A stretch of 64,000 nt of DNA from Bimastos eiseni (Eukaryota > Annelida > Clitellata > Crassiclitellata > Lumbricidae). The first letter of the stretch is position 1. Each line of letters begins with the position of its first letter. Shown here piece after piece: positions 23,401 through 61,707 of the stretch. Location of the stretch: the NCBI GenBank assembly GCA_959347315.1, contig OY365806.1, positions 54,775,116-54,839,115 on the forward strand. The letters are read 5' to 3'. The position numbers were made by a program, and so were the translations under genes. A model generated the notes under the pieces. It was not told the origin of the DNA, made no database searches, and was given only the letters and a program-made list of their open reading frames with translations.

Positions 23401-26400
23401 GCATACATGCATTATGCTGCATAAACAACTACAAGCAAATTTCAAATAGACCAGTATGCGAGCAAATTACATAGACAAGAACAACTAAGACTATTAAAAC
23501 TGACAACTAGAGATAAAATGGTTCACAAAACTATTTTTAAACAGTTCAGATCTAATTGCAGGCAACAGGGAAGGGTGAAGAAAGTCCTCACAAGATAATA
23601 GAAGCAGGAACTGGTGAAGGCAGAGGCAATGATTTCATGTGGCATATACTGTTGTTGTTAGCAACTGAATTAAGTGCATTTTGACTTTCGCCGAACTAAG
23701 GTTTGATTAGAGCTGCAATCAGGGCTTTTTTCTGATGGTACGCATCTATATGGCATACCAGGACCATTTTTAAGCCATTAAAATTTAATTTATTTATATT
23801 CAGTGTTTTTAGCAGTATTGATTGTAAATAAGAGCAAAATAAAAATTGTGTGTTGTGAGTTAAAACTCATACGCTTTGGCTGAGCATAGAATACGTCCCC
23901 ATTGATCCATTGTACCTCAGATATTATTAGACATCATTAATTACTCCATTGACAATTCATTTCTGATCTGCATGTCTTAGTTTAATAAAAGAATTTTTTT
24001 TAAATAATACAATTTTTCTATAAAACAAGAAATTTTTTTTAGTTAATAATTACTTAATCCAACTCAGACAATGAAGAAAATTACGGCTTTCTGTTTATCA
24101 TGGCCAGTTGTACATGGCATACTCAAGAGTAGGAACTGCAAAATAAATTTATATGTCTTAGCTCTGAGCAAAAAGCTTTATATCTGTTGTGTACACCAAT
24201 TGCAGTTCAACCCAGGCTAAGCCGGGTACTTCAGCTAACTTTGATATAGATCTATGACACCATTAAATTTGATCAGAGAATAAAAAAGAAAATAGAGTTA
24301 CACACATCGACTGATTATGAGATCCTTTTCTTTGTAGATAAGATGACCTTCAGAGTCATCCTGAATCTTTGACCAAACTTCATTCTTGGCATCAAATGAG
24401 ACTTTCAAGCTCTTTTCTTCTGTCGACGGCTGTTACATAAAGATAGTCCACAAGAATAAAATGATTGCAAATGCAGTTGGCAACATCCTGTGTGTCAAGC
24501 AAGTGATCTGAGATGCCTTGCATTCTATGACAACAAATGCTTCAGATTAACCTAAGAAAACTTGCTCATACATAAATCCATAATAGTGAGATAAATTATA
24601 ACATAAAATATTTCCAAATTAATCAACAACAGGATTCAAAATATTCTTATATGTTAATGACACATAGCACTGTATTTTATAATAAGAAGCAAGGGCTATC
24701 AATATTGAATTCAGCTTTTCTTACTTCATATTCCTAGTCATGGTAATAATTTTAAAACCATAATTTCAATGGCAAATTTATATAGCACCAATCCAATTGG
24801 AATATTTTTCGTTGGGTTATACACATATACAGAGTAATGTATGTATTCTTTCAACAACAAGAAGCTATTTGATTCTAACTCATCCAGTCACCTTCAACAT
24901 GTTCTTACCAAAAATCTATTGTTGAATACAGTGCTATGTAGATCCAACTCAATTCAATTTCTTTGATAACCAAATTACAAGTAAATAAGGCACAACAATT
25001 AGAAATGAAATAATCTGGTCACACAGGGGAACCTAAAGGGCCATGGACCCTGCTATCCGGGGCTCTCGTGTAAAATGAAAAACATGGTGACGCCCTACCC
25101 ATAATAACAATCGTTACAAACTATCTAGATATAAATAGACAGAAGGAACTCTTAACTAATGTATTAACTAATGTATTAACTAATGTATTAAAACTAATGT
25201 ATTAACTAATGTATTAACTAATGTATTAACTAATGTATTAACTAATGTATTAACTAATGTATTAACTAATGTATTAACTAATGTATTAACTAATGTATTA
25301 ACTAATGTATTAACTAATGTATTAACTAATGTATTAACTAATGTATTAACTAATGTATTAACTAATGTATTAACTAATATATTAACTAATGTATTAACTA
25401 ATGTATTAACTAATGTATTAACTAAGGGCTGAGTACCACACAACTGAGCAAAAGTCCTAATCCGCAAGAAAGAAAAGTTGGAGTTTATATTATTTATAAA
25501 TAATCTAGTGTTTGGTTGGCATTGGAAGTATGTTGAAAAAGGCTCCAGGAATTGGATCCAGTACATTGGGTAGATAATAATTAAGCATTAGTATGTGCAT
25601 AAAGAGTGTTGTAAGAAGTATAGTTTCTTGTAAGGAGGGTAAAAAGAAGTCAAACTTCTTCTTTCATAGGAGTGGCGATCAGAGGCAAGGCAAAAGACAT
25701 TAACAAAATCATGTGGAAAAAAGACCATGAATGTTGCAATACACATAAACTCTCAAATTTGCACATGACTGAATCAATCAAGCTTTTACAGTCTGGGTAA
25801 TGCAGATTAAAAATATAAAACTAGATTACAATTTCATCTTATTACTTTGTCTGCATAATGCTATTGATATTTGTTTGGACCTTTTGTCAAGAACTATTAT
25901 GCCATAGTCTTATTTGCACATGCCAGCAACACTGTGATTTATTACTAATTTAGTACAAAAATGTGTATTTGTCACAGTTGGCTCAATTAGCCCATTAGCA
26001 GGATCGTACTCTCTTAGGTTCTTAGTTCCATTGTTCCCTAATATTGCCGGTTTGGGACTATTTTCTCTTGTACTTACTTCTTTAGTATATATTTATCACC
26101 ATTGATATTTGGGTTAAATAAAATTATAACTGTATTAAATATTGTTTAAATATTTTTTTATTGTGATATTCTATGTTCATCTATTATCTGTTTGTCACAA
26201 AAATAACGCCACAACTTCCTCTAATTAAATAAATTATTAAAGAACGTTTCTGGCGCGTTTATGTCTGTTGGGGTATGCACACAAATAAGTTTTAGTTTGG
26301 GGGGGGGGTTAAACAAAAAAGAAGGTTGGAAACCGCTTGCCAAGGGATCCGTTCTTAGTTCTCCATAAACTCAACTCCGCCTATATTCTTTATTCTGCGT

Positions 26401-33152: not shown

Positions 33153-34132
33153 TGTAACGGTTCTGGGGTACGCCTACTTGGTGTCGACCTGCTGTAGTGT
33201 CTGTCTGTTGTGTACGCCTGTCTACTGTGTTCTTTCTTCTGTGGTATCTACCTGCTGTATACGCCTATCTACTATCTACTGTAGATATCTACTATCTACT
33301 GTAGTCTATCTACTATCTACTGTAGATATCTACTATCTACTGTATCCTATCTACTTTGTATTATCTACTATCCACTGTGTAGTCTCTACTGTCTACTATC
33401 TACTATCTACTGTAGTCTATCTACTATCTACTGTAGATATCTACTATCTACTGTATCCTATCTACTGTGTAGTCTCTACTGTCTACTGTCTCCTATCTAC
33501 TGTGTATCATCTACTATCTACGGCAAATTAGTATAAAAGGATCAGAGGGTCGTCATCAGGGAGTCGTCATCGGAGAGTCGTCGTAGGATCGTGGTCGTCG
33601 TCGTCATCGGAGAGTCGTCGTAGGATCGTGGTCGTCGCCGTCGTCTGGAGATCGTCATCGGGGAGCCTTGTAGATTCGGCTTCGGCCTTGCAGTCTCGGC
33701 GCCTAGGAAGCACGAATATTCGTCGTGGATATAGTCGTCGCAGATTTGCGATAGTCGCCGTCAGCCATTGACGCAGCATAGCAGTCGCCGTCAGCCATTG
33801 CCGTAGCATAGTAGTCGCCGTCAGCCATTGACGTAGCGTTGCAATTACTCGTTAGTTATCGACGTAGGGCGTATTGAGGGAGTGAGAAACGGACTGTTTC
33901 CGAATCGGCGCTACAGAAGTATTGTTTTCCGTTGTACATTAAAAGAAGATTATCGAACAAGCGTGTCTTATTCCAAGCGTCATCCAGAAAGGAGCTATTT
34001 AAACCTTAAATGGTTAGTCTTCAGCAAACCACTGAAGCCTTACTCAGCGGACTGCAACACGAACTACCCCATATCGGACGGGGCTGCAAGTCGTCATCCT
34101 GGTCACTGTCGAATAGGCCCCGTTCCGTTACA
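33153..34132 (+). repeat. 5' LTR, family A
   Basis: The 980-bp LTR runs from TGTAACGGTTCTGGGG to CCCCGTTCCGTTACA, with 8-bp inverted tips TGTAACGG/CCGTTACA. U3 carries a long array of TATCTACTG-type repeats (about 33,250-33,520) and a TATA box, TATAAAAG, at 33,532. GTCGTC-rich repeats follow downstream. The Tyr/Leu-rich open frame over the U3 array is not a gene. Confidence 0.95.
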
Positions 34133-38232: not shown

Positions 38233-39123
38233 TGTAACGGTTCTGGGGTACGCCTACTTGGTGTCGACCTGCTGTAGTGTCTGCCTGTTGTGTACGCCTG
38301 TCTACTGTGTTCTTTCTTCTGTGGTATCTACCTGCTGTATACGCCTATCTACTATCTACTGTAGATATCTACTATCTACTGTAGTCTATCTACTATCTAC
38401 TGTAGATATCTACTATCTACTGAATCCTATCTACTTTGTATTATCTACTATCCACTGTGTAGTCTCTACTGTCTACTGTCTCCTATCTACTGTGTATCAT
38501 CTACTATCTACGGCAAATTAGTATAAAAGGATCAGAGGGTCGTCATCAGGGAGTCGTCATCGGAGAGTCGTCGTAGGATCGTGGTCGTCGTCGTCATCGA
38601 AGAGTCGTCGTAGGATCGTGGTCGTCGCCGTCGTCTGGAGATCGTCATCGGGGAGCCTTGTAGATTCGGCTTCGGCCTTGCAGTCTCGGCGCCTAGGAAG
38701 CACGAATAGTCGTCGTGGATATAGTCGTCGCAGATTTGCGATAGTCGCCGTCAGCCATTGACGCAGCATAGTAGTCGCCGTCAGCCATTGACGTAGCATA
38801 GTAGTCGCCGTCAGCCATTTGCGTAGCGTTGCAATTACTCGTTAGTTATCGACGTAGGGCGTATTGAGGGAGTGAGAAACGGACTGTTTCCGAATCGGCG
38901 CTACAGAAGTATTGTTTTCCGTTGTACATTAAAAGAAGATTATCGAACAAGCGTGTCTTATTCCAAGCGTCATCCAGAAAGGAGCTATTTAAACCTTAAA
39001 TGGTTAGTCTTCAGCAAACCACTGAAGCCTTACTCAGCGGACTGCAACACGAACTACCCCCATATCGGACGGGGCTGCAAGTCGTCATCCTGGTCACTGT
39101 CGAATAGGCCCCGTTCCGTTACA
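38233..39123 (+). repeat. 3' LTR, family A
   Basis: The 891-bp LTR is the same as the 5' LTR except for a missing block of about 88 bp in the TATCTACTG array and about ten point differences. Its TATA box is at 38,522. TTAT follows as the target duplication. Confidence 0.95.
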
Positions 39124-39209
39124 TTATTGTTCAGCGTTATGTGTCACCAATTGAGTGTCGATCATGTTCGAACCAGGTTAGAAGCTGCTCTTCTGGTAGG
39201 CCATCGTGT

Positions 39210-40667
39210 TGTAACGGAACGGGGCCTATTCGAAAGTGACCAGGATGATGACTTGCAGCCCCGTCCGATATGGGGGTAGTTCAAGTTGCAGTCCGCTGAG
39301 TAAGACTTCAGTGGTGTCCTGAAGACTAACTATTTAAGGTTTAAATAGCTCCTTTCTGGATGACGCATGGAATAAGAGGCGCTTGTTCGATAATCCTCTT
39401 TTAATGTACAACGGAAAACAATACTTCTGTAGCGCCGATTCGGAAGCAGTCCGTATCTCACTCCCTCAATACGCCCTACGTCGATAACTAACGAGTTACT
39501 GAAATGCTACGTCAATGGTTGACGGTGACTACTATGCTACGTCAATGGTTGGCGGCGACTATCGCAAATCTACGACGACTATTCGTGCTTCCTAGGAGCT
39601 GAGACTGCAAGGCCGAAGCCGAAGCCGAATCTACAAGGCTCCCCGATGACGATCTTCAGACGACGAAGACGATCCCGATCTTCCAGGCGATCTCTCCTTT
39701 TATACTAATTTGCTGTAGATAGTAGATGATACACAGTAGATAGGAGACAGTAGACAGTAGAGACTACACAGTAGATGGTAGATAGACTACAGTAGATAGG
39801 ATACAGTAGATAGTAGATATCTGCAGTAGATAGTAGATAATACGCAGTAGATAGGATACAGTAGATAGTAGATATCTACAGTAGATAGTAGATAGACTAT
39901 AGTTGATAGGATACAGTAGATAGTAGATATTACACAGTAGTAGGATACAGCAGGTAGTGGATATCTGCAGTAGTGTAAGAACGCTTAAGGGTTCTACTTC
40001 AAACTAGCTCTACTATTATATCAGATGTTGACGAGTAGATTATGCTAGGGGAAACTAGCTACACATGAAGAGACAGTTAGAATACAACTTATCTTTATTA
40101 AATACAGAGAAGAAGAGGTAATAATAATAATATATATAATGATTACGACTAATACACAACAGTTACATGTACTTACTAATATGAGTATGGATGAGATGAT
40201 AACGACCAAGTCCTAAGATGATATGAGTTGACGAGCCTGACAAGATAACTAGAGTTCTCCGGTAGTCAGACTGCCCGGTTCCTAACAGTGCTCTAGCATA
40301 TAAGTGAGTTTCCTCAGCCAAAGAGGAAACTGGCCTATCCTAGAACAGACTACTTTGATTGGCCAACTACTGACCACTCAAAGTATCCCTAGAATGTGGG
40401 TTGATTGTATCTGCTAGAGCCTACACGAGTGACTGACAGAACCTATACTGTCTGAATTAGTGAATGTTCATCTAAAACTAATGTATGATAATGATCTATA
40501 TATATAATCTGTTCGAGGCTATCTATTGTAATGTAATGTACAGAATAATCACGGTTACAGTAGATAGTAGATAGACTGCAGCAGATAGGACACAGTAGAC
40601 AGATGTACACAACAGGCAGACACTACAGCAGGCCGACACCAGGTAGGCGTACCCCCGAACCGTTACA
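39210..40667 (-). repeat. Solo LTR of Gypsy family A, interrupted by a family C LTR
   Basis: In reverse orientation this starts TGTAACGGTTCGGGGG and ends CCCCGTTCCGTTACA, matching the family A LTR. The flanks carry an exact 4-bp target duplication GTGT (39,206-39,209 and 40,668-40,671). No internal sequence remains, so it is a recombination product. Without the nested insert it is about 868 bp. It is more diverged than the pair at 33,153/38,233, hence older. It lies inside the PKA-RII C-terminal coding sequence. Confidence 0.93.
39974..40559 (-). repeat. Solo LTR of family C nested in the family A solo LTR
   Basis: The 586-bp unit, read on the minus strand, runs from TGTAACCGTGATTATTCTG to AGCGTTCTTACA. 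It has a 4-bp target duplication GTAG (39,970-39,973 and 40,560-40,563). It is related to the LTR at 2,408-3,013 along its whole length. Its insertion site is in the TATCTACTG array of the host LTR. Confidence 0.93.
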
Positions 40668-41369
40668 GTGTTTCTTTTCATGACCTCCCGGCACGGTCCG
40701 AGCAGCCGTTCGAAGCACTCCCAACAGGAAAGCCACCTTGACTCTTCCGACGGCGTAGACGCTGGCCGACCTCTCTCTGTGCTCGAGCAGGGCCATCTCT
40801 CCGAAGTACATTCCACTCGTCGCCCTCGAAACGATTTTCTCCTCGCCCTGGTCGCAGATCGTTATCCGCGCGGCACACCACTCGACGGAGAACATGCCAT
40901 CCGCTTGCCCGTCCCCTCTCGGATGATACACATCCCGTAGTCGTAGGACCTCGACACAAAGGCGTCTGCCAGAGTCATCCGCTCGTAACCGTCCAAGGAC
41001 TGGAGCATTGGAACGCTCTGGAGCAGTCGCTCGTACATCTTGTGCTTCCGGAAGACGTTGTGAAGGACGATCCGGCGGAAAGGACATCCGGTCCATGGCC
41101 CAGAGGGTCCCTTGGATCACGGCCACCACTGACGCTGCCCGAGTCATGTTGTACATGAGGGCAAGCTCACCGAAATTGCCACGACCGTCAAACTGGAGGA
41201 CCTTCTGGCTCTGAACGCTTTCGCGACGGATGATCACGTCAAAGATACCGTTCTCGATGACGTAGAAGTTGTCGCCGTCGTCGCCTTGTCGGATCACGTG
41301 CTCGCCTGGCGCCACCTTGCGTTCGAACATGGCACTGATCACTTCCTTCATTAGGTCGCTGCCGGGGAT

Positions 41370-45056: not shown

Positions 45057-45770
45057 TGTTGAGAAATTGTCGCACTAGGGGACCCCCTCCCTTTCTAGTC
45101 GGTCTTGTTCCCACGGTCAGCGCTCTTCGGTTTTCCCGATCGTACACCCTCCAACTCAAGCTTCGCTCCTTCCCCTCGCTTTTCTGTCGTCAGCTCTCTT
45201 CTCAATGCTCTCTCTTTCTCACGCTTTATCTGTTGGCACTGCTCTTGTTTGCTCTTTCCTCCCTCTCTTTCTGTCGTCAGCCTGCTCTTCGCCTGTCGGT
45301 GATGCCTTTGTGTGGCCGTTCTTGGTGGGAATTTGCTTCCTGAAATCTTCGCCAGGTGTTCTCTTTCCCACGGTCGAGGGCGGTTTCAGCGCTATAAAAG
45401 GGGGCCCGGTTTTAGTCGAAAGAGAGTCCGAGGAAGACCGTCAGATGGAGCAGTCGAAGCACGGCCTGATCGAACCGAAGAGAACAGTCCGATCTCCGCC
45501 AGCCGAGGGAACAGTTCGAATAAGTCCGACATAGCGACACGGGGTCTGTCGGTCAACAGTAGGCTACCTGAAAAAGAGTACGGCAGTGAGATTGTGAGGA
45601 GGTGGCCACTCGTTCGTTGAGAGGACGACCGGCCAGGGCGAGATTTGGCGTCTGTCAAGAAATACAGAAATATTGCAGAATTGTTGTGGTTAAGTCCTCT
45701 GCCGGACCGGAGAGGCCGAAATTCGCGCGTGACATCCTTGTAGTAGAGACCCCCCCCCAATGTCGCCACA
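45057..45770 (+). repeat. 5' LTR, family B
   Basis: The 714-bp LTR runs from TGTTGAGAAATTGTCGC to TGTCGCCACA. A TATA box TATAAAAG lies at 45,393, just after TTTCCCACGGTCGAGGG. Several overlapping open frames in it are not genes. Confidence 0.95.
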
Positions 45771-45771
45771 G

Positions 45772-45788
45772 TGGTACCAGAAGTGGAG
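45772..45788 (+). promoter_or_regulatory. Primer-binding site, family B
   Basis: TGGTACCAGAAGTGGAG begins one base after the LTR. It is identical to the family A site and fits a tRNA-Leu-like 3' end. Confidence 0.85.
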
Positions 45789-52373: not shown

Positions 52374-53085
52374 TGTTGAGAAATTGTCGCACTAGGGGAC
52401 CCCCTCCCTTTCTAGTCGGTCTTGTTCCCACGGTCAGCGCTCTTCGGTTTTCCCGATCGTGCACCCTCCCACTCAAGCTTCGCTCCTTCCCCTCGCTTTT
52501 CTGTCGTCAGCTCTCTTCTCAATGCTCTCTCTTTCTCACGCTTTATCTGTTGGCACTGCTCTTGTTTGCTCTTTCCTCCCTCTCTTTCTGTCGTCAGCCT
52601 GCTCTTCGCCTGTCGGTGATGCCTTTGTGTGGCCGTTCTTGGTGGGAATTTGCTTCCTGAAATCTTCGCCAGGTGTTCTCTTTCCCACGGTCGAGGGCGG
52701 TTTCAGCGCTATAAAAGGGGGCCCGGTTTTAGTCGAAAGAGAGTCCGAGGAAGACCGTCAGATGGAGCAGTCGAAGCACGGCCTGATCGAACCGAAGAGA
52801 ACAGTCCGATCTCCGCCAGCCGAGGGAACAGTTCGAATAAGTCCGACATAGCGACACGGGGTCTGTCGGTCAACAGTAGGCTACCTGAAAAAGAGTACGG
52901 CAGTGAGATTGTGAGGAGGTGGCCACTCGTTCGTTGAGAGGACGACCGGCCAGGGCGAGATTTGGCGTCTGTCAAGAAATACAGAAATATTGCAGAATTG
53001 TTGTGGTTAAGTCCTCTGCCGGACCGGAGAGGCCGAAATTCGCGCGTGACATCCTTGTAGTAGAGACCCCCCCAATGTCGCCACA
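52374..53085 (+). repeat. 3' LTR, family B
   Basis: The 712-bp LTR differs from the 5' LTR by two substitutions (near 52,460-52,472) and a shorter C run. Its TATA box is at 52,710. GTAT follows as the target duplication. Confidence 0.96.
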
Positions 53086-53089
53086 GTAT

Positions 53090-56878: not shown

Positions 56879-57083
56879 TGAAATTTGATATCGCCCTTCT
56901 TCCAACATTTTTTGCTCAGAAGTGCACACGTCTCGACGACGCAATTGCAAATGTACTGCAGAGCAATCGTACGCAATAGACTTGCTCAAGGTTCCTACAC
57001 AGTGACGCCTCAGACGAGGGTCGAACCCGCTCACTCAGCGCACACTGAGCGTTACGGGCTCTAACCAATCGACCACCGTGCCA
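56879..57083 (-). mobile_element. tRNA-derived SINE copy with boxes A and B
   Basis: On the minus strand it reads GGTGGTCGATTGGTTAGAGC (box A), then GAGCGGGTTCGACCCTCG (box B), then a body shared with 56,378-56,513, ending in GAAGGGCGATATCAAATTTC. The two copies face each other about 365 bp apart. Confidence 0.78.
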
Positions 57084-57734
57084 CACGGTGTCAGAGCAGT
57101 TGTGAAGGATCCGGTGTAAACTCGACAGTATAGGCTGTAGGCTGTAGGACTGCAATCTGATTAAATGAAGCATCAGTCAAAGCCATGAACAAACTCGATC
57201 TTGTTTCATTTTGCTTGAAATAGGCCTTTGACAGAACAGCAACGGGCGGACAGTCTGAAAACATTTCGAGTAGCTTTGGCTAAGTGCGGCGCGCTAAATA
57301 CAGCTGTCCATTCTTTTTTATAGGCCTATGTAATAATATTAATTCGCCATTTCGGCAATGTTGCTTAATAGGCCTACTTCAAAATCCCAACAGTTTAGAC
57401 CATCTACTTCTGAACCAGTGTCAAATGTACAACAGAGCTTAAATAAACTTAAGTGTATAAAAAGAAGTGCCTGGACGCTAGTATCAAAAAGTTAAGAACT
57501 ATATTTGTGGCGGACAGGCCACAAGGCTTGGATTAAAGAATTTGTTCGTAATTAATCGGCTCGCCATAGCGCTTAATTTACGTACATTTTCTTACAGTGT
57601 TGGTATTGGAGGGAAGACCGATCGGCGGTTTGTAGTTCTGTGCATAGCGTGCAGACGCATGAATCGGGTTGAGTATAGCCTGACATGCGGTGCGTCGCTT
57701 ATATTGTAGAGTGGTGACGACTGCTCTGCATATA

Positions 57735-57825
57735 CGGTGCACCGAATTCTTTGGTTAGTGGTTAATACCGCACACCCGTGTGGTCAGTGAGCGTTCGTTC
57801 AAAGCCTGGTTCACGGCAAGTTGGG
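57735..57825 (+). mobile_element. Possible tRNA-like SINE head
   Basis: TTGGTTAGTGGTTAATACC followed by GTTCGTTCAAAGCC resembles degenerate tRNA promoter boxes. It lies just before the hairpin-rich block. Weak evidence. Confidence 0.3.
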
Positions 57826-58038
57826 GAAAAAATATAGTTGCGGACGAGAGGGCGTCCCCAAAAAAACTAGTCCGAGCTACAGCCGAGCGTCTGGTGTTGA
57901 GACCGACTCCGCCGATCTGATAGGGCTGAGGCCCCACCCTGTTATCGATCGTGAGAAAGTCTGCAGCCGATTGTGAGGTTGCTTCCTCGGGAATATCCGA
58001 CAGTGAAATAAATAAATAATCACAGGTCTCTGTAAAGA

Positions 58039-58640
58039 CCGGGTAAAGCCCGGGTTAGCCGTTCGTATAGACCGAGAAAGATCTCGGGTGGCCGAGAGTG
58101 ATACAGACTGGGTGAGTCCCAGAAGGGACCGACCGCATATACCGAGAGAGGCCTCGGCGGCCGACAGAGAGATAGACTGGGAAAAAATCCCCGACCTCGC
58201 AGACCGCGAGAAAGTTTTGGTAACCAAGAAATATAAATGTTGGCTACCTAGACCAGTCATAGTTAATCCTCCAGTTTTCCAGCAGGTTGTCGGATACGCA
58301 AAAGTTTCGGGTGGCCGAGACTGAGAAAGTTTTGGTAACCAAGAAATATAAATGTTGGCTACCTAGACCGGTCATAGTTAATCCTCCCGTTTTCCAGCAG
58401 GTGGTCGGATACGCAAAAGTTTCGGGTGGCCGAGACCGATAAAATTAGGGTGGTCGCTAGAGATACAAGCCGGCTAGATTCCCGTAGTAGCAACCATACA
58501 GACCGAAAGAGAGGCCGGTGGAACGGTCGATAAATACGGAGAAAGTTTCCCATTGAATACGTTCGATAAATACGGGGAAAGTTTCCCAGTGGATACGTTC
58601 GATAAATACGGGGAGGGTGACCCCATTGGTGCTTACGACG
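58039..58640. repeat. Array of small hairpins, part 1
   Basis: Successive short palindromes have different stems but a similar layout: CCGGG/CCCGG (58,039-58,053), CCGAGA/TCTCGG (58,072-58,087), CTGGG/CCCAG (58,108-58,122), CCGAG/CTCGG (58,142-58,157), GGGA/TCCC (58,179-58,191) and GGGAAA/TTTCCC (58,575-58,587). A 115-bp direct duplication lies at 58,208-58,322 and 58,323-58,437, and contains TTGGCTACCTAGACC. The function is unknown. Confidence 0.8.
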
Positions 58641-58722
58641 ATTACAAGAAACGGTCGTGACTGGTGCCGAAGACCTCAATAATTGCGGGTGTTTCCTCAT
58701 CTTCTTTTCCCTGTAATAATAC

Positions 58723-59160
58723 TTGGCTACCTAACGTAGTCATACTTACTCCCGCGGTCTTCCGCGTTATCTTTACTTGCGTGTCTGATCGCAATATCTT
58801 TACTCGCGGTTTCCCCGCGATATCTTTACTTGCGCGTCTGATCGCAATATCTTTATTCGCGGTTTCCCCGTGATACCTCTTCTTGATTGTCTTACGGTCT
58901 TTCGATAAATATTCTTGTTAGCTACCTAACGTGGTCATACTTACTCCCGCGGTCTTCCGTGGTTTCTTGACTTGCGTGTCTGATCGCAACAATATCTTTA
59001 CTCGCGGTTTCCCCGCGATATCTTTACTTGTGTGTCTGATCGCAGTATCTTTAATCGCGGTTTCGCCGCGATATCTCTTCTTGATTGTATTACGGTTTTT
59101 CGATAAATATTCTTCTTGGCTACCTAACGTGGTCATAGATACTCCCCGGGTTTTCCCGAA
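58723..59160. repeat. Array of small hairpins, part 2 (two tandem units of about 195 bp and part of a third)
   Basis: Units start with TTGGCTACCTAACG or a close variant at about 58,723, 58,917 and 59,116. Each holds alternating hairpins, CGCGG/CCGCG and TTGCG/CGCAA, separated by ATATCTTTACT. Examples are 58,753-58,766, 58,777-58,794, 58,805-58,819 and 58,830-58,847. The start word is shared with part 1. There is no coding potential. Confidence 0.85.
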
Positions 59161-59225
59161 GTCTCAGTATATATTACGGTGTTGGTGGACAACTGCAAAA
59201 CGCAGAGGACGGTCAATCGTGGTGC

Positions 59226-59582
59226 ATGATAATTTATACGTGTGAGGCCGGTATGCCGATCAGTGGCCAGTATTGCCTAAGGCAAAGTGACGAAGGGACT
59301 TGTTACAAATATTTCTGCTCTCCGGAACAGGGAGAACGTTTGATGCCCTCTGTTGGCGATTATTTAAGAGTCACGAGATGTACAATGATACGACGAAGCT
59401 CAGGTCAGGTAGAGAGAAAGAGGAAAACCGTCTCTAAGCGGGCAAACAAGAAAGGGAAGACTCCGGTCGGTAAACGAGCGAACCCTGTTCTGAATAAAGG
59501 CCATCTTCAGGACGTTGCCCATCCGGCGACCGCGAGAGTGATAGAGTCTGATCCCGAGACAGAGTCATATTGCCTCTTTTAG
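59226..59582 (+). CDS. Unrecognised open frame next to the hairpin array
   Basis: The frame has 118 codons from ATG 59,226. The N-terminal half is Cys-containing (QYCLRQSDEGTCYKYFC), and the middle is strongly basic (RKRKTVSKRANKKGKTPVGK). It ends SDPETESYCLF. It looks more like coding than the surrounding sequence, and the reading continues open in another frame up to about 59,765. No family is recognised. It could be the first open frame of an unknown element whose leader is the hairpin array, or a chance frame. Confidence 0.3.
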   Translation: MIIYTCEAGMPISGQYCLRQSDEGTCYKYFCSPEQGERLMPSVGDYLRVTRCTMIRRSSGQVERKRKTVSKRANKKGKTPVGKRANPVLNKGHLQDVAHPATARVIESDPETESYCLF

Positions 59583-61707
59583 AGAAACGGTCAACCCCGA
59601 TTCTCCTCTGACAGTCACTGCTACGATAGGCATAGATGGAGAACACTCAGGCTATGCTAAAAATCGACTTAGAAGTGACTCGAGTAGCTCCAGACACAGA
59701 AGAGGGCTGGAGCCGACACCGTTGCGCGACCTGGTAGCTTCCGAACGGTGTACGCCACATATTTAGTTAGCATTCGTTATGTTTTTGTCCATTAACAATT
59801 ATTTTGTCGTCAACTATTTGTTGGTAAAATATTTGTTATAATTTTAAGCGTACAGAGAATTACTTACCTTTGTGAAATTGTCGACAAGGGGCCGTTGGCG
59901 TCGGCAGCGTTTTTAAAGTTGAGGTAATATAGATTGCGAAACGCGAAATTTGTTGCCTCTTCTTTTTCCGAGTCCTGCCCGACGTGTTCTTGCAGAGAGT
60001 TGTGTCTCTTTGCAGAGGAACATGCTCTAGTCAATATTGATCTAGAATTGAATTTAGTCCATAGGCCTATATATAAGACCTTTTTGTGAAACTAAGACTT
60101 TTTCACAATTGAACCCGTAATATATGCTCCATTGTGACATTTTTTTAAAATTTGGACAATAATTATATGCGAGTAGGGACCCACAATAGGCCTATGGGTC
60201 GCATATAATTATTGTCCATGGCAGTGCTGACATAGACCTAGGAGTGGGAGACCTCTGTCTGATCTCAACGGTAGGCCTACTGTTATTTTTATTTTTTTAA
60301 AGCAGAGTTCTAAATTAATTGGAATAATGGCTTCGCTATCTTATTGGCCTCGCCTAAGCTTGCCAGAAGTGTTGTTGAGTAATTCAGTGCTTAAAGTGTG
60401 CCTGGACGGTCATGGACGGCGTCCAGACACTTATTTGGTCAGCACGGCCTGGACGCAGCCCATGAGCGTCCATGTAGCAGTGCAATTCCTCTATGTACGT
60501 TATTATCAACAGAATTTAATTTTATACTATTCCAAAAATTCATATTTTCATTAGGCCTAAGTATTAACTGAAGTAGCTCATGCATATAATGGATGTCAAT
60601 CGTGTTATATAGTTTGGTTACATTTTCATCAAATTAATTTTCGTCTTATGCGCTTCCGGCGTCTGCTGCATTTGGCGATTAATTTTCAGATGTAGCCTAA
60701 ACGGCAAAAAGTTGTTCAACTGATTTTATAAAAAAAATTTACGAGCTCATCACGCCTAATAAGTTATAAAGCTAATTTAGTTGCACTAAATACCATAGCA
60801 CGTATGAAATTGAACTGAATTTCTACTTTTTCAAGTTGCGAAACGATGAAACGTGTAGGTATCATATGTGAGCGATTTATTGAACTATTAAATTTTACAT
60901 TTGAGAGCGGACTTTTCTTTTGGATAGACTAGTCCAAATTTTATGTCGCAAACGCCAGCAATCCATAGCGTAGAAAGGATCGCGTATGGTTCGCGAATGA
61001 TCTAAGGTCTTTCGCGCCAAAAGAAAAGCGCCGCCTATCGGCTGGTTAGGTGTAGTTTGCTTGGTAACGCGAAGATGATTAGCGTCGCCTTCCTTCTTTG
61101 CCAAGGCTTTGGATGGACACTGCCGGAGTATACCTAGAGGCGGCGTGGGTCAGTCCTAAAATCTTGCGAGAGACCCTAGCGTATTTCCCACCAAATGAAA
61201 GAAGCGACCATTTGTTATGTTTTAAGCATTTAAGGTCATATAAGGTGTTTTAATGTAACGCCAGAACAGTCACATACCACCGACACCAGATATAAGATAA
61301 GTGTGTGTGTTTCAACTCGGTTTCAACGTAAATTACTCCGTGTTTACAATCAGTGCAGGAATCTATATTTAACTCGCTGTTTATCCCTTTCACATTTATC
61401 CATAGATATCGCCACGTTCAATATTTACGCCTGTTATAAAATATATGATTTTTTTATATCTGCAAAGGCAGTTTTGAACCTCGCAAAATATTTTGTCGAT
61501 TTGCTTGCAATTATTGTGTAATCAAAGACCCAATACTTCCTGGTCTCTGATTATCACTCAATAAGTCGCATGACAGTACAGAAAGACTTCGCGTCTTGCT
61601 TGTTATAGATCACGGCCATCTGCCGTGTTTACGCTCAACTGTTCCGGCGGAACTTACAACAGCAGACGATTTGTATTTCTCTGTGACATTTTTAACGTAC
61701 AAAGCTT
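59583..61707. other. Unassigned, with small palindromes
   Basis: No gene is recognised. A 64-bp hairpin with 19-bp perfect arms (GGACAATAATTATATGCGA) lies at 60,154-60,217. An imperfect palindrome around GTGCCTGGACG lies at 60,399-60,431. Confidence 0.4.

What the first reader, a model, noticed from the sequence alone, without database searches (positions are those of the whole stretch)
58039..59160. Array of small hairpins with changing stems and conserved layout
At least a dozen short palindromes follow each other. The stems differ in sequence (CCGGG/CCCGG, CCGAGA/TCTCGG, CTGGG/CCCAG, CGCGG/CCGCG, TTGCG/CGCAA) but stay paired, and in the second half they alternate at a spacing of roughly 25 bp, separated by ATATCTTTACT. 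Both halves share the word TTGGCTACCTA followed by GTCATA, so they come from one ancestral unit that was duplicated at several scales. Paired stems surviving while sequence drifts suggests selection for folding, in RNA or as cruciform DNA. I know no transposon leader, satellite or RNA family with this plan. It could be the leader of an unknown element whose open frame is at 59,226.
Basis: partly seen in the sequence, partly recalled or inferred. Interest (0 to 1): 0.75.

Follow-up and report, generated by a model that had tools for sequence, protein, structure and literature searches.

The report
Hairpin-rich leader inside retrotransposon LTR
The run of small hairpins is part of the long terminal repeat of a recently active Ty3/gypsy retrotransposon in an animal genome: it lies in what looks like the untranslated leader just before the element's Gag start, kept almost free of start codons, and the copy in this window is a leftover single repeat.

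Summary
The hairpins are real: 13 non-overlapping perfect stems against 3.4 in shuffles, 9 against 1.7 after dropping duplicated units. They lie inside a solo LTR, 57506-59759 (TGTGGCG...CGCCACA, 4-bp target duplication TATT), of a Ty3/gypsy retrotransposon with 39 other scored places at 96-97% identity in this 660-Mb genome. Two of three LTR pairs are identical, so the family is young. The array fills the stretch between a poly(A) signal and the Gag start: the inferred U5 leader. That leader avoids ATG on the sense strand: mean 2.6 against 22.1 expected over 33 distinct leaders. The guess 'leader of an element with its frame at 59,226' is right. 'Stems kept by selection' is not shown: stem and unpaired columns vary alike, and two hairpins each carry a broken pair in 15 of 21 distinct arrays. 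Only a weak sense-strand folding signal remains. A new variant of a known kind.

The parts
57506..59759 (+). Solo LTR of a Ty3/gypsy retrotransposon (TGTGGCG...CGCCACA)
   Evidence: Of the 39 other scored matches of the 57400-58019 query, 38 begin at query 97-107 (107 = 57506) and one at 79; ends and length 2254 by comparison with other copies
57502..57505 (.). Left target-site duplication TATT
   Evidence: 27 of 40 recognised LTRs have identical 4-bp flanks
59760..59763 (.). Right target-site duplication TATT
57700..59225 (+). ATG-depleted leader (inferred R plus U5); inferred start of transcription near 57.69-57.75 kb
   Evidence: ATG 2 against 20.3 on +, 11 against 14.1 on -; also in 33 distinct leaders
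58007..58012 (+). AATAAA poly(A) signal just before the array (inferred end of R)
   Evidence: its surrounding 25-mer is exact in 18 of 20 LTRs printed, identical copies counted, the window itself having a variant
58025..58210 (+). First hairpin group (CCGGG, CCGAGA, CTGGG, CCGAG, CTCGC stems, some as arm-complement-arm)
58208..58437 (+). Two 115-nt A units; each holds the recurrent upstream ATG followed by a 4-codon frame ending in TAG (read from sequence); 1-4 such units per LTR
58523..58630 (+). Three 36-nt C units (the word TTCGATAAATA, shared with the B units, occurs 3-7 times per LTR among 40)
58723..59160 (+). B units (195/198 nt, 2.2 copies), each with a TGGCTAC/GTRGTCA stem and up to five 5-7 bp hairpins joined by TATCTTTACT-like linkers
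59226..59759 (+). LTR-encoded N-terminal part of the Gag-Pro-Pol frame, broken in this copy (5 stops, shorter than the 623 nt usual in other copies)
   Evidence: open over 623 nt to the LTR end in 32 of 37 other anchored LTRs, identical copies counted

Best explanation
The array is the R-U5 leader of a young Ty3/gypsy retrotransposon family. SHOWN: it lies inside the LTR, between an AATAAA and the Gag start codon that is also inside the LTR; the sense strand of this 1.4-1.8 kb stretch is strongly depleted of ATG in the 33 distinct leaders measured; each of 33 distinct arrays holds 9-16 hairpins where shuffles average 3.5; unit numbers differ from copy to copy. INFERRED: transcription starts near 57.7 kb, so that ribosomes scan or bypass a long, hairpin-rich, nearly AUG-free leader to reach the Gag AUG; selection acts chiefly against upstream AUGs; the palindromic units multiply by slippage or template switching during replication or reverse transcription; a modest sense-strand RNA folding constraint may also act. 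The window copy is a solo LTR, as left by recombination between LTRs, with its Gag start region broken.
For: Genome copies and 10,406-bp spacing; LTR boundary at 57506; 4-bp target duplications in 27 of 40 LTRs; PBS TGGTACCAGAAGTGGGG after the LTR and a purine tract before it; Pfam gag/PNMA, aspartyl protease, RVT_1, RNaseH, H2C2, rve, p58_C; the frame from the 59226-equivalent ATG is open to the LTR end in 32 of 37 other anchored LTRs; ATG avoidance on the sense strand, ending at the Gag ATG (ORF part 7 against 7.6); identical LTR pairs; hairpin excess.
Against: No transcript data: start site, R/U5 limits and translation are inferred. The U3 part of gypsy A's LTR, which should not be in its leader, is also ATG-free (0 against 7.4), so ATG absence in a repeat-rich LTR is not proof by itself. 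There are two recurrent upstream ATGs (54 and 23 of the 87 ATGs in 33 leaders). No clear TATA box near 57.7 kb (reading of the sequence). Coding constraint on the LTR part of the frame is weak (22 distinct frames: pN/pS 0.59 for all segregating changes, 1.24 for those shared by two or more). Folding constraint is not established.
Confidence: 0.8

Rival explanations
1. Within the leader, the hairpins themselves do nothing: they are a by-product of tandem duplication and template switching of palindromic units, and only absence of AUG is selected.
For: Stem columns vary like unpaired ones (28 of 160 against 57 of 278), and hairpins B1h2 and B1h4 each carry a broken pair in 15 of 21 distinct B regions; B1-to-B2 changes P 0.24; unit number varies. 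Template switching can make and correct stems (PMC8794818, abstract with start of the introduction, and Discussion, read). The first 500 nt of the LTR, outside the array, also fold better than shuffles (z -3.6 and -3.2 in two copies), so folding is not special to the array.
Against: 33 distinct arrays keep 9-16 hairpins against 3.5 expected on average; sense-strand folding is better than antisense in 8 of 8 copies, and four similar young copies fold better than random-substitution controls on the sense strand (P 0.045, 0.07, 0.045, 0.105, not independent), not the antisense (P 0.33-0.53). Three other copies show nothing (P 0.45-0.74).
Confidence: 0.5
2. The hairpins are a selected RNA feature: a modular array that shapes the leader for packaging, dimerisation or cap-independent or shunted translation.
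For: Covariation between units, 52 of 55 cells against 45.0 shuffled; two adjacent compensatory changes in B3h1; z -3.7 to -9.0 on sense against -0.4 to -6.1 on antisense; the UGGCUAC/GURGUCA stem unbroken in 21, 20 and 20 of 21 B regions at its three sites.
Against: See the by-product rival; the unit alignment was made by hand, which favours pairing, and antisense pairing is also above shuffles (50 against 44.0); unit covariation can predate the family or come from template switching; RNAalifold on the MAFFT unit alignment gave no pairs (that alignment misplaces the h1 units).
Confidence: 0.35
3. The palindromes act as DNA, as binding sites for dimeric regulators in the LTR.
For: Short palindromes at near-fixed 26-27 bp spacing in the B units; LTRs carry regulatory sites (general knowledge).
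Against: ATG depletion and better folding favour one strand; the array lies 3' of the poly(A) signal, not in the expected U3.
Confidence: 0.1
4. The repeats are decayed protein-coding repeats.
For: One reading register is poor in stops on both strands (8 against 17-22); unit periods 36 and 198 are multiples of 3.
Against: B1/B2 pN/pS 0.60-1.5 over six frames; the 115-nt unit breaks frame; ATG nearly absent; no homologue of the 104-aa frame.
Confidence: 0.03

Closest known systems
Ty3/gypsy (Metaviridae) LTR retrotransposons
   Same: LTRs TG...CA, 4-bp target duplication, PBS, purine tract, gag-AP-RT-RNaseH-IN order
   Different: ~2.4-kb LTR holding a ~1.5-kb ATG-depleted hairpin-rich leader and the first 207 codons of the polyprotein; about 900 residues precede the capsid match (arithmetic, one copy)
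Hypervariable tandem repeats of plant Ogre elements (Macas et al. 2009, as cited in PMC7004042; passages read)
   Same: Short tandem repeats inside a Ty3/gypsy element that vary in sequence and length
   Different: There in the 3' untranslated region; here inside the LTR, in the leader before Gag, with hairpins and ATG avoidance
Ty1 of yeast (recalled, from no call)
   Same: Gag start codon lies inside the 5' LTR
   Different: Ty1 is a copia-type element with a short coding part in its LTR; here 623 nt of coding lie in the LTR
Template-switch hairpins (PMC8794818, abstract with start of introduction, and Discussion, read)
   Same: A mutational route to perfect stems and double changes
   Different: Described for RNA genes; not tested on this array
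The other two gypsy elements of this window (A, LTRs 33153-34132 and 38233-39123; B, LTRs 45057-45772 and 52374-53087 by BLAST limits)
   Same: The same PBS but for one base, TGGTACCAGAAGTGGAG; ATG-poor R-U5 (A: 1 against 5.3; B: 1 against 4.0, P 0.037); A has some hairpin excess (5 against 1.8, P 0.018)
   Different: Shorter leaders, no array of this kind; B has no hairpin excess (1 against 1.3); A's U3 is ATG-free as well

Membership tests
Ty3/gypsy LTR retrotransposon | Paired LTRs with TG...CA ends and target-site duplication | tested here: met
   L014/L015 (TGTT), L016/L017 (ATAT), L037/L047 (GTAT) pairs; 27 of 40 LTRs with identical 4-bp flanks
Ty3/gypsy LTR retrotransposon | tRNA primer binding site after the 5' LTR and purine tract before the 3' LTR | tested here: met
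   AAT-TGGTACCAGAAGTGGGG and AAGGTGGGGAGAG read in L011 and L013; tRNA identity not checked
Ty3/gypsy LTR retrotransposon | gag-protease-RT-RNaseH-integrase in that order | tested here: met
   pieces of the C17 copy only
Ty3/gypsy LTR retrotransposon | RT clade placement | not tested
   No tree built
Endogenous retrovirus with envelope | env frame after integrase | tested here: not met
   No sense frame of 100 aa or more between the stop and the next LTR in L013; one copy only
Known Rfam RNA family | Match at gathering score | tested here: not met
   0 matches in the window
Selected RNA structure | Pairing kept across copies better than chance | tested here: inconclusive
   Against: weakly for:
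Ogre-type hypervariable repeats | Repeats lie in the 3' untranslated region | tested here: not met
   Here inside the LTR, before the Gag start

The most novel reading that the evidence does not exclude
An animal Ty3/gypsy family has built a modular RNA leader from tandemly multiplied hairpin units inside its LTR, purged of AUG and selected for sense-strand folding, that carries ribosomes (or packages the RNA) to a Gag start codon also placed inside the LTR; unit number differs between copies, so the leader can evolve as fast as a satellite while keeping its function.
Probability: 0.3. Interest if true: 0.55.

Novelty: new variant of a known kind. Interest (0 to 1): 0.4.

Why it matters
It turns an unexplained 'hairpin array' into a testable case of how a leader can grow by tandem duplication without gaining start codons. 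The very young copies with differing unit numbers are natural variants for asking whether repeated small hairpins in a leader matter for translation or packaging. It also shows a Gag frame that begins about 600 nt inside an LTR, which annotation pipelines that take Gag to start after the PBS would cut short (my inference).

Tried and rejected
Rfam, protein search of the 118-aa frame (nothing at E<=1; only candidates of 0.55-1.75 times its length are seen, so a 2458-aa polyprotein could not appear) and of a 104-aa array frame: nothing. Two 20-base patterns in viral contigs: 0. ARAGORN: none. Self-comparison of the window found no second LTR, as expected for a solo LTR. Coding repeats rejected. 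RNAalifold on a MAFFT alignment of units gave no structure because the h1 units were misaligned; pairs were then counted on a hand alignment, which favours pairing. A TATA-like word at 57456 was first taken as a promoter (my reading): rejected, it lies outside the LTR (57506). A search for diverged families with the 307-aa frame that starts in the LTR never got an answer, so the deeper covariation test is missing. Rows dropped: 39 of 45 fetched LTR loci were recognised by end anchors (not L004, L019, L025, L028, L029, L032); L026's end was miscalled (2651 nt with target duplication) and it is the one 37-nt 'open' frame, not counted; L010 and L036 lack the Gag anchor; 34 of 40 LTRs (21 distinct) entered the B-region alignment. 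The genome searches scored only 40 of 1766 and 40 of 1340 candidates, so the copies studied are the best-matching ones, not a random sample. Papers: searches gave listings with starts of abstracts, none; in PMC4974528 one passage was shown, of no use for the question.

Full report
WHAT IS THERE. The array is real. It holds 13 non-overlapping perfect stems against 3.4 expected, and 9 against 1.7 with duplicated units removed, 0 of 1000 shuffles; the stretch 58438-58720 alone is not enriched. It is built from nested tandem units of 115, 36 and 195/198 nt. The two 'shared words' hold the arms of one stem, UGGCUAC/GURGUCA, in the B units. The later hairpins repeat every 26-27 nt. Folding of 58720-59160 beats all of 100 shuffles on both strands, z -6.3 on + and -4.5 on -; 58020-58720 gives z -1.9 and -2.3, 0 of 20 shuffles as good.

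WHAT IT IS. The window lies in a 660-Mb genome of 118 contigs. One window frame matches PKA regulatory subunits, and the named hits among the 120 listed are animals, so an animal is inferred. The stretch 58720-59160 has 39 other scored places at 96-97% identity, some 10,406 bp apart (40 of 1766 candidates scored). Of the 39 other scored matches to the sequence left of the array, 38 begin within ten bases of 57506 (40 of 1340 candidates scored). Comparing copies gives a repeat TGTGGCG...CGCCACA; the window copy, 57506-59759, is flanked by TATT on both sides. Of 40 LTRs recognised (39 of 45 fetched loci, plus the window), 27 have identical 4-bp flanks on both sides and so look like solo LTRs; others border an internal region. 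Three full elements have LTR pairs: L014/L015 identical, L037/L047 identical, L016/L017 99.8%. On C17 three LTR matches lie in a row at 10,406-bp steps.

In the C17 copy the 2374-nt LTR is followed by AAT and TGGTACCAGAAGTGGGG, the PBS that the two other gypsy elements of this window also bear with one change, and preceded by a purine tract. Read in three overlapping pieces in one phase, a single frame runs from the ATG equivalent to 59226, through the LTR end and the PBS, to a stop after integrase, about 2458 codons (arithmetic). Pfam finds gag/PNMA, aspartyl protease, RT, RNaseH, H2C2, integrase and p58_C. There is no sense frame of 100 aa or more after the stop, so no envelope in that copy. 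The first 207 codons lie in the LTR; about 900 residues, rich in Arg (13.6% in the 700 counted), precede the capsid match. Among 37 other LTRs with the anchor, identical copies counted, 32 keep this frame open over 623 nt to the LTR end, four do not, and one had its end miscalled.

HOW IT PROBABLY WORKS. On the sense strand, 57700-59225 has 2 ATG against 20.3 expected, 0 of 500 shuffles as low; the antisense has 11 against 14.1, 91 of 500 as low. With duplicates removed it is 1 against 14.1, and ATG is the most depleted of 64 triplets. Over 33 distinct leaders the mean is 2.6 (range 1-5) against 22.1. Of 87 ATGs there, 54 and 23 belong to two sites and ten forms are seen once, three of them variants of the first site. 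Depletion ends at the Gag ATG: the ORF part has 7 against 7.6; the first 194 nt of the LTR have 2 against 4.0, not significant. The four longest sense ATG-free runs of the window are two in this leader and one overlapping each LTR of gypsy A. A caution: gypsy A's U3 is ATG-free too (0 against 7.4). With an AATAAA at 58007 whose surroundings are conserved, the simplest reading is U3 57506 to about 57.7 kb, R to about 58.03 kb, and U5 from there: the array is the U5 leader. These limits are inferred; no transcript was seen. The recurrent upstream ATG in the A unit opens a frame of four codons (read from the sequence).

ARE THE STEMS SELECTED? Results against: B1-to-B2 substitutions break stems as often as random ones (P 0.24); among 21 distinct B regions 28 of 160 stem and 57 of 278 unpaired columns vary; B1h2 and B1h4 each have a broken pair in 15 of 21; the first 500 nt of the LTR, outside the array, also fold better than shuffles (z -3.6 and -3.2), the ORF part less (-1.6 and -1.7). 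Results for: between units of the window 52 of 55 cells pair as sense RNA against 45.0 with 3' arms shuffled (hand alignment; antisense 50 against 44.0; 32 of 35 against 26.7 for the 7 distinct ones, P 0.002); 33 distinct arrays keep 9-16 hairpins against 3.5 expected on average, and in 3 of the 33 at least one of 60 shuffles reached the count; the sense strand folds better than the antisense in 8 of 8 copies (z -3.7 to -9.0 against -0.4 to -6.1). Against random substitution from the window copy, four similar young copies retain sense folding (P 0.045, 0.07, 0.045, 0.105, not independent) but not antisense; three other copies show neither. So pairing is an old property of the units, and its present upkeep is unproven.

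COMPARISON. In kind this is a Ty3/gypsy retrotransposon. Tandem hypervariable repeats inside such elements are known from plant Ogre elements, in the 3' untranslated region (PMC7004042, passages). Gag starting inside an LTR is recalled for Ty1. The combination seen here (a long LTR, an AUG-poor hairpin array as leader, and 207 Gag codons inside the LTR) did not show in the listings of the searches made, which hold open-access papers only.

VERDICT. Observation confirmed; 'leader of an element with its frame at 59,226' confirmed as to place and frame, transcription being inferred; 'unknown element' and 'selection for folding' not. New variant of a known kind.

Noticed in passing
33153-34132 and 38233-39123: LTRs of a second gypsy element (A) with CTATCTACTGTAGATAT repeats before a TATA box and an ATG-poor R-U5 with three 30-nt units carrying a CGTCA/TGACG hairpin in two of them; an inverted piece of the LTR follows at 39190-39929.
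   Followed up: partly
45057-45772 and 52374-53087: LTRs, 99.4% identical, of a third gypsy element (B); a 201-aa frame starts about 11 nt before the LTR end and reads through the PBS.
   Followed up: partly
L012, first ~700 residues of the open frame (- strand): Long Arg/Ser/Glu-rich, disordered-looking region, part of about 900 residues before the capsid match; no Pfam hit there at E<=0.01.
   Followed up: no
40623-41351 (-): Single open frame of 242 aa with a cyclic-nucleotide-binding domain, nearest to PKA type II regulatory subunits of animals, close to the inverted gypsy A LTR piece; perhaps an exon or a retrocopy.
   Followed up: no
56985-57095 (-): tRNA-like stretch with A-box and B-box-like words (recalled motifs), perhaps a tRNA-derived SINE; ARAGORN found no tRNA.
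   Followed up: no
G000:C17:9308700-9332100: Three LTR matches at 10,406-bp steps, i.e. two internal regions sharing a middle LTR; the middle LTR and the one at 9308700-9311700 (L011, L018) are identical; the third (L019) was not recognised by the end anchors.
   Followed up: partly
L010, L036: LTRs of 1795 and 2052 nt lacking the Gag-start anchor, perhaps other subfamilies or deletions.
   Followed up: no
60153-60218: Perfect 20-bp inverted repeat around 26 nt, MITE-like.
   Followed up: no
25152-25425: 12-bp tandem repeat TTAACTAATGTA, 22.7 copies, 97% matches.
   Followed up: no
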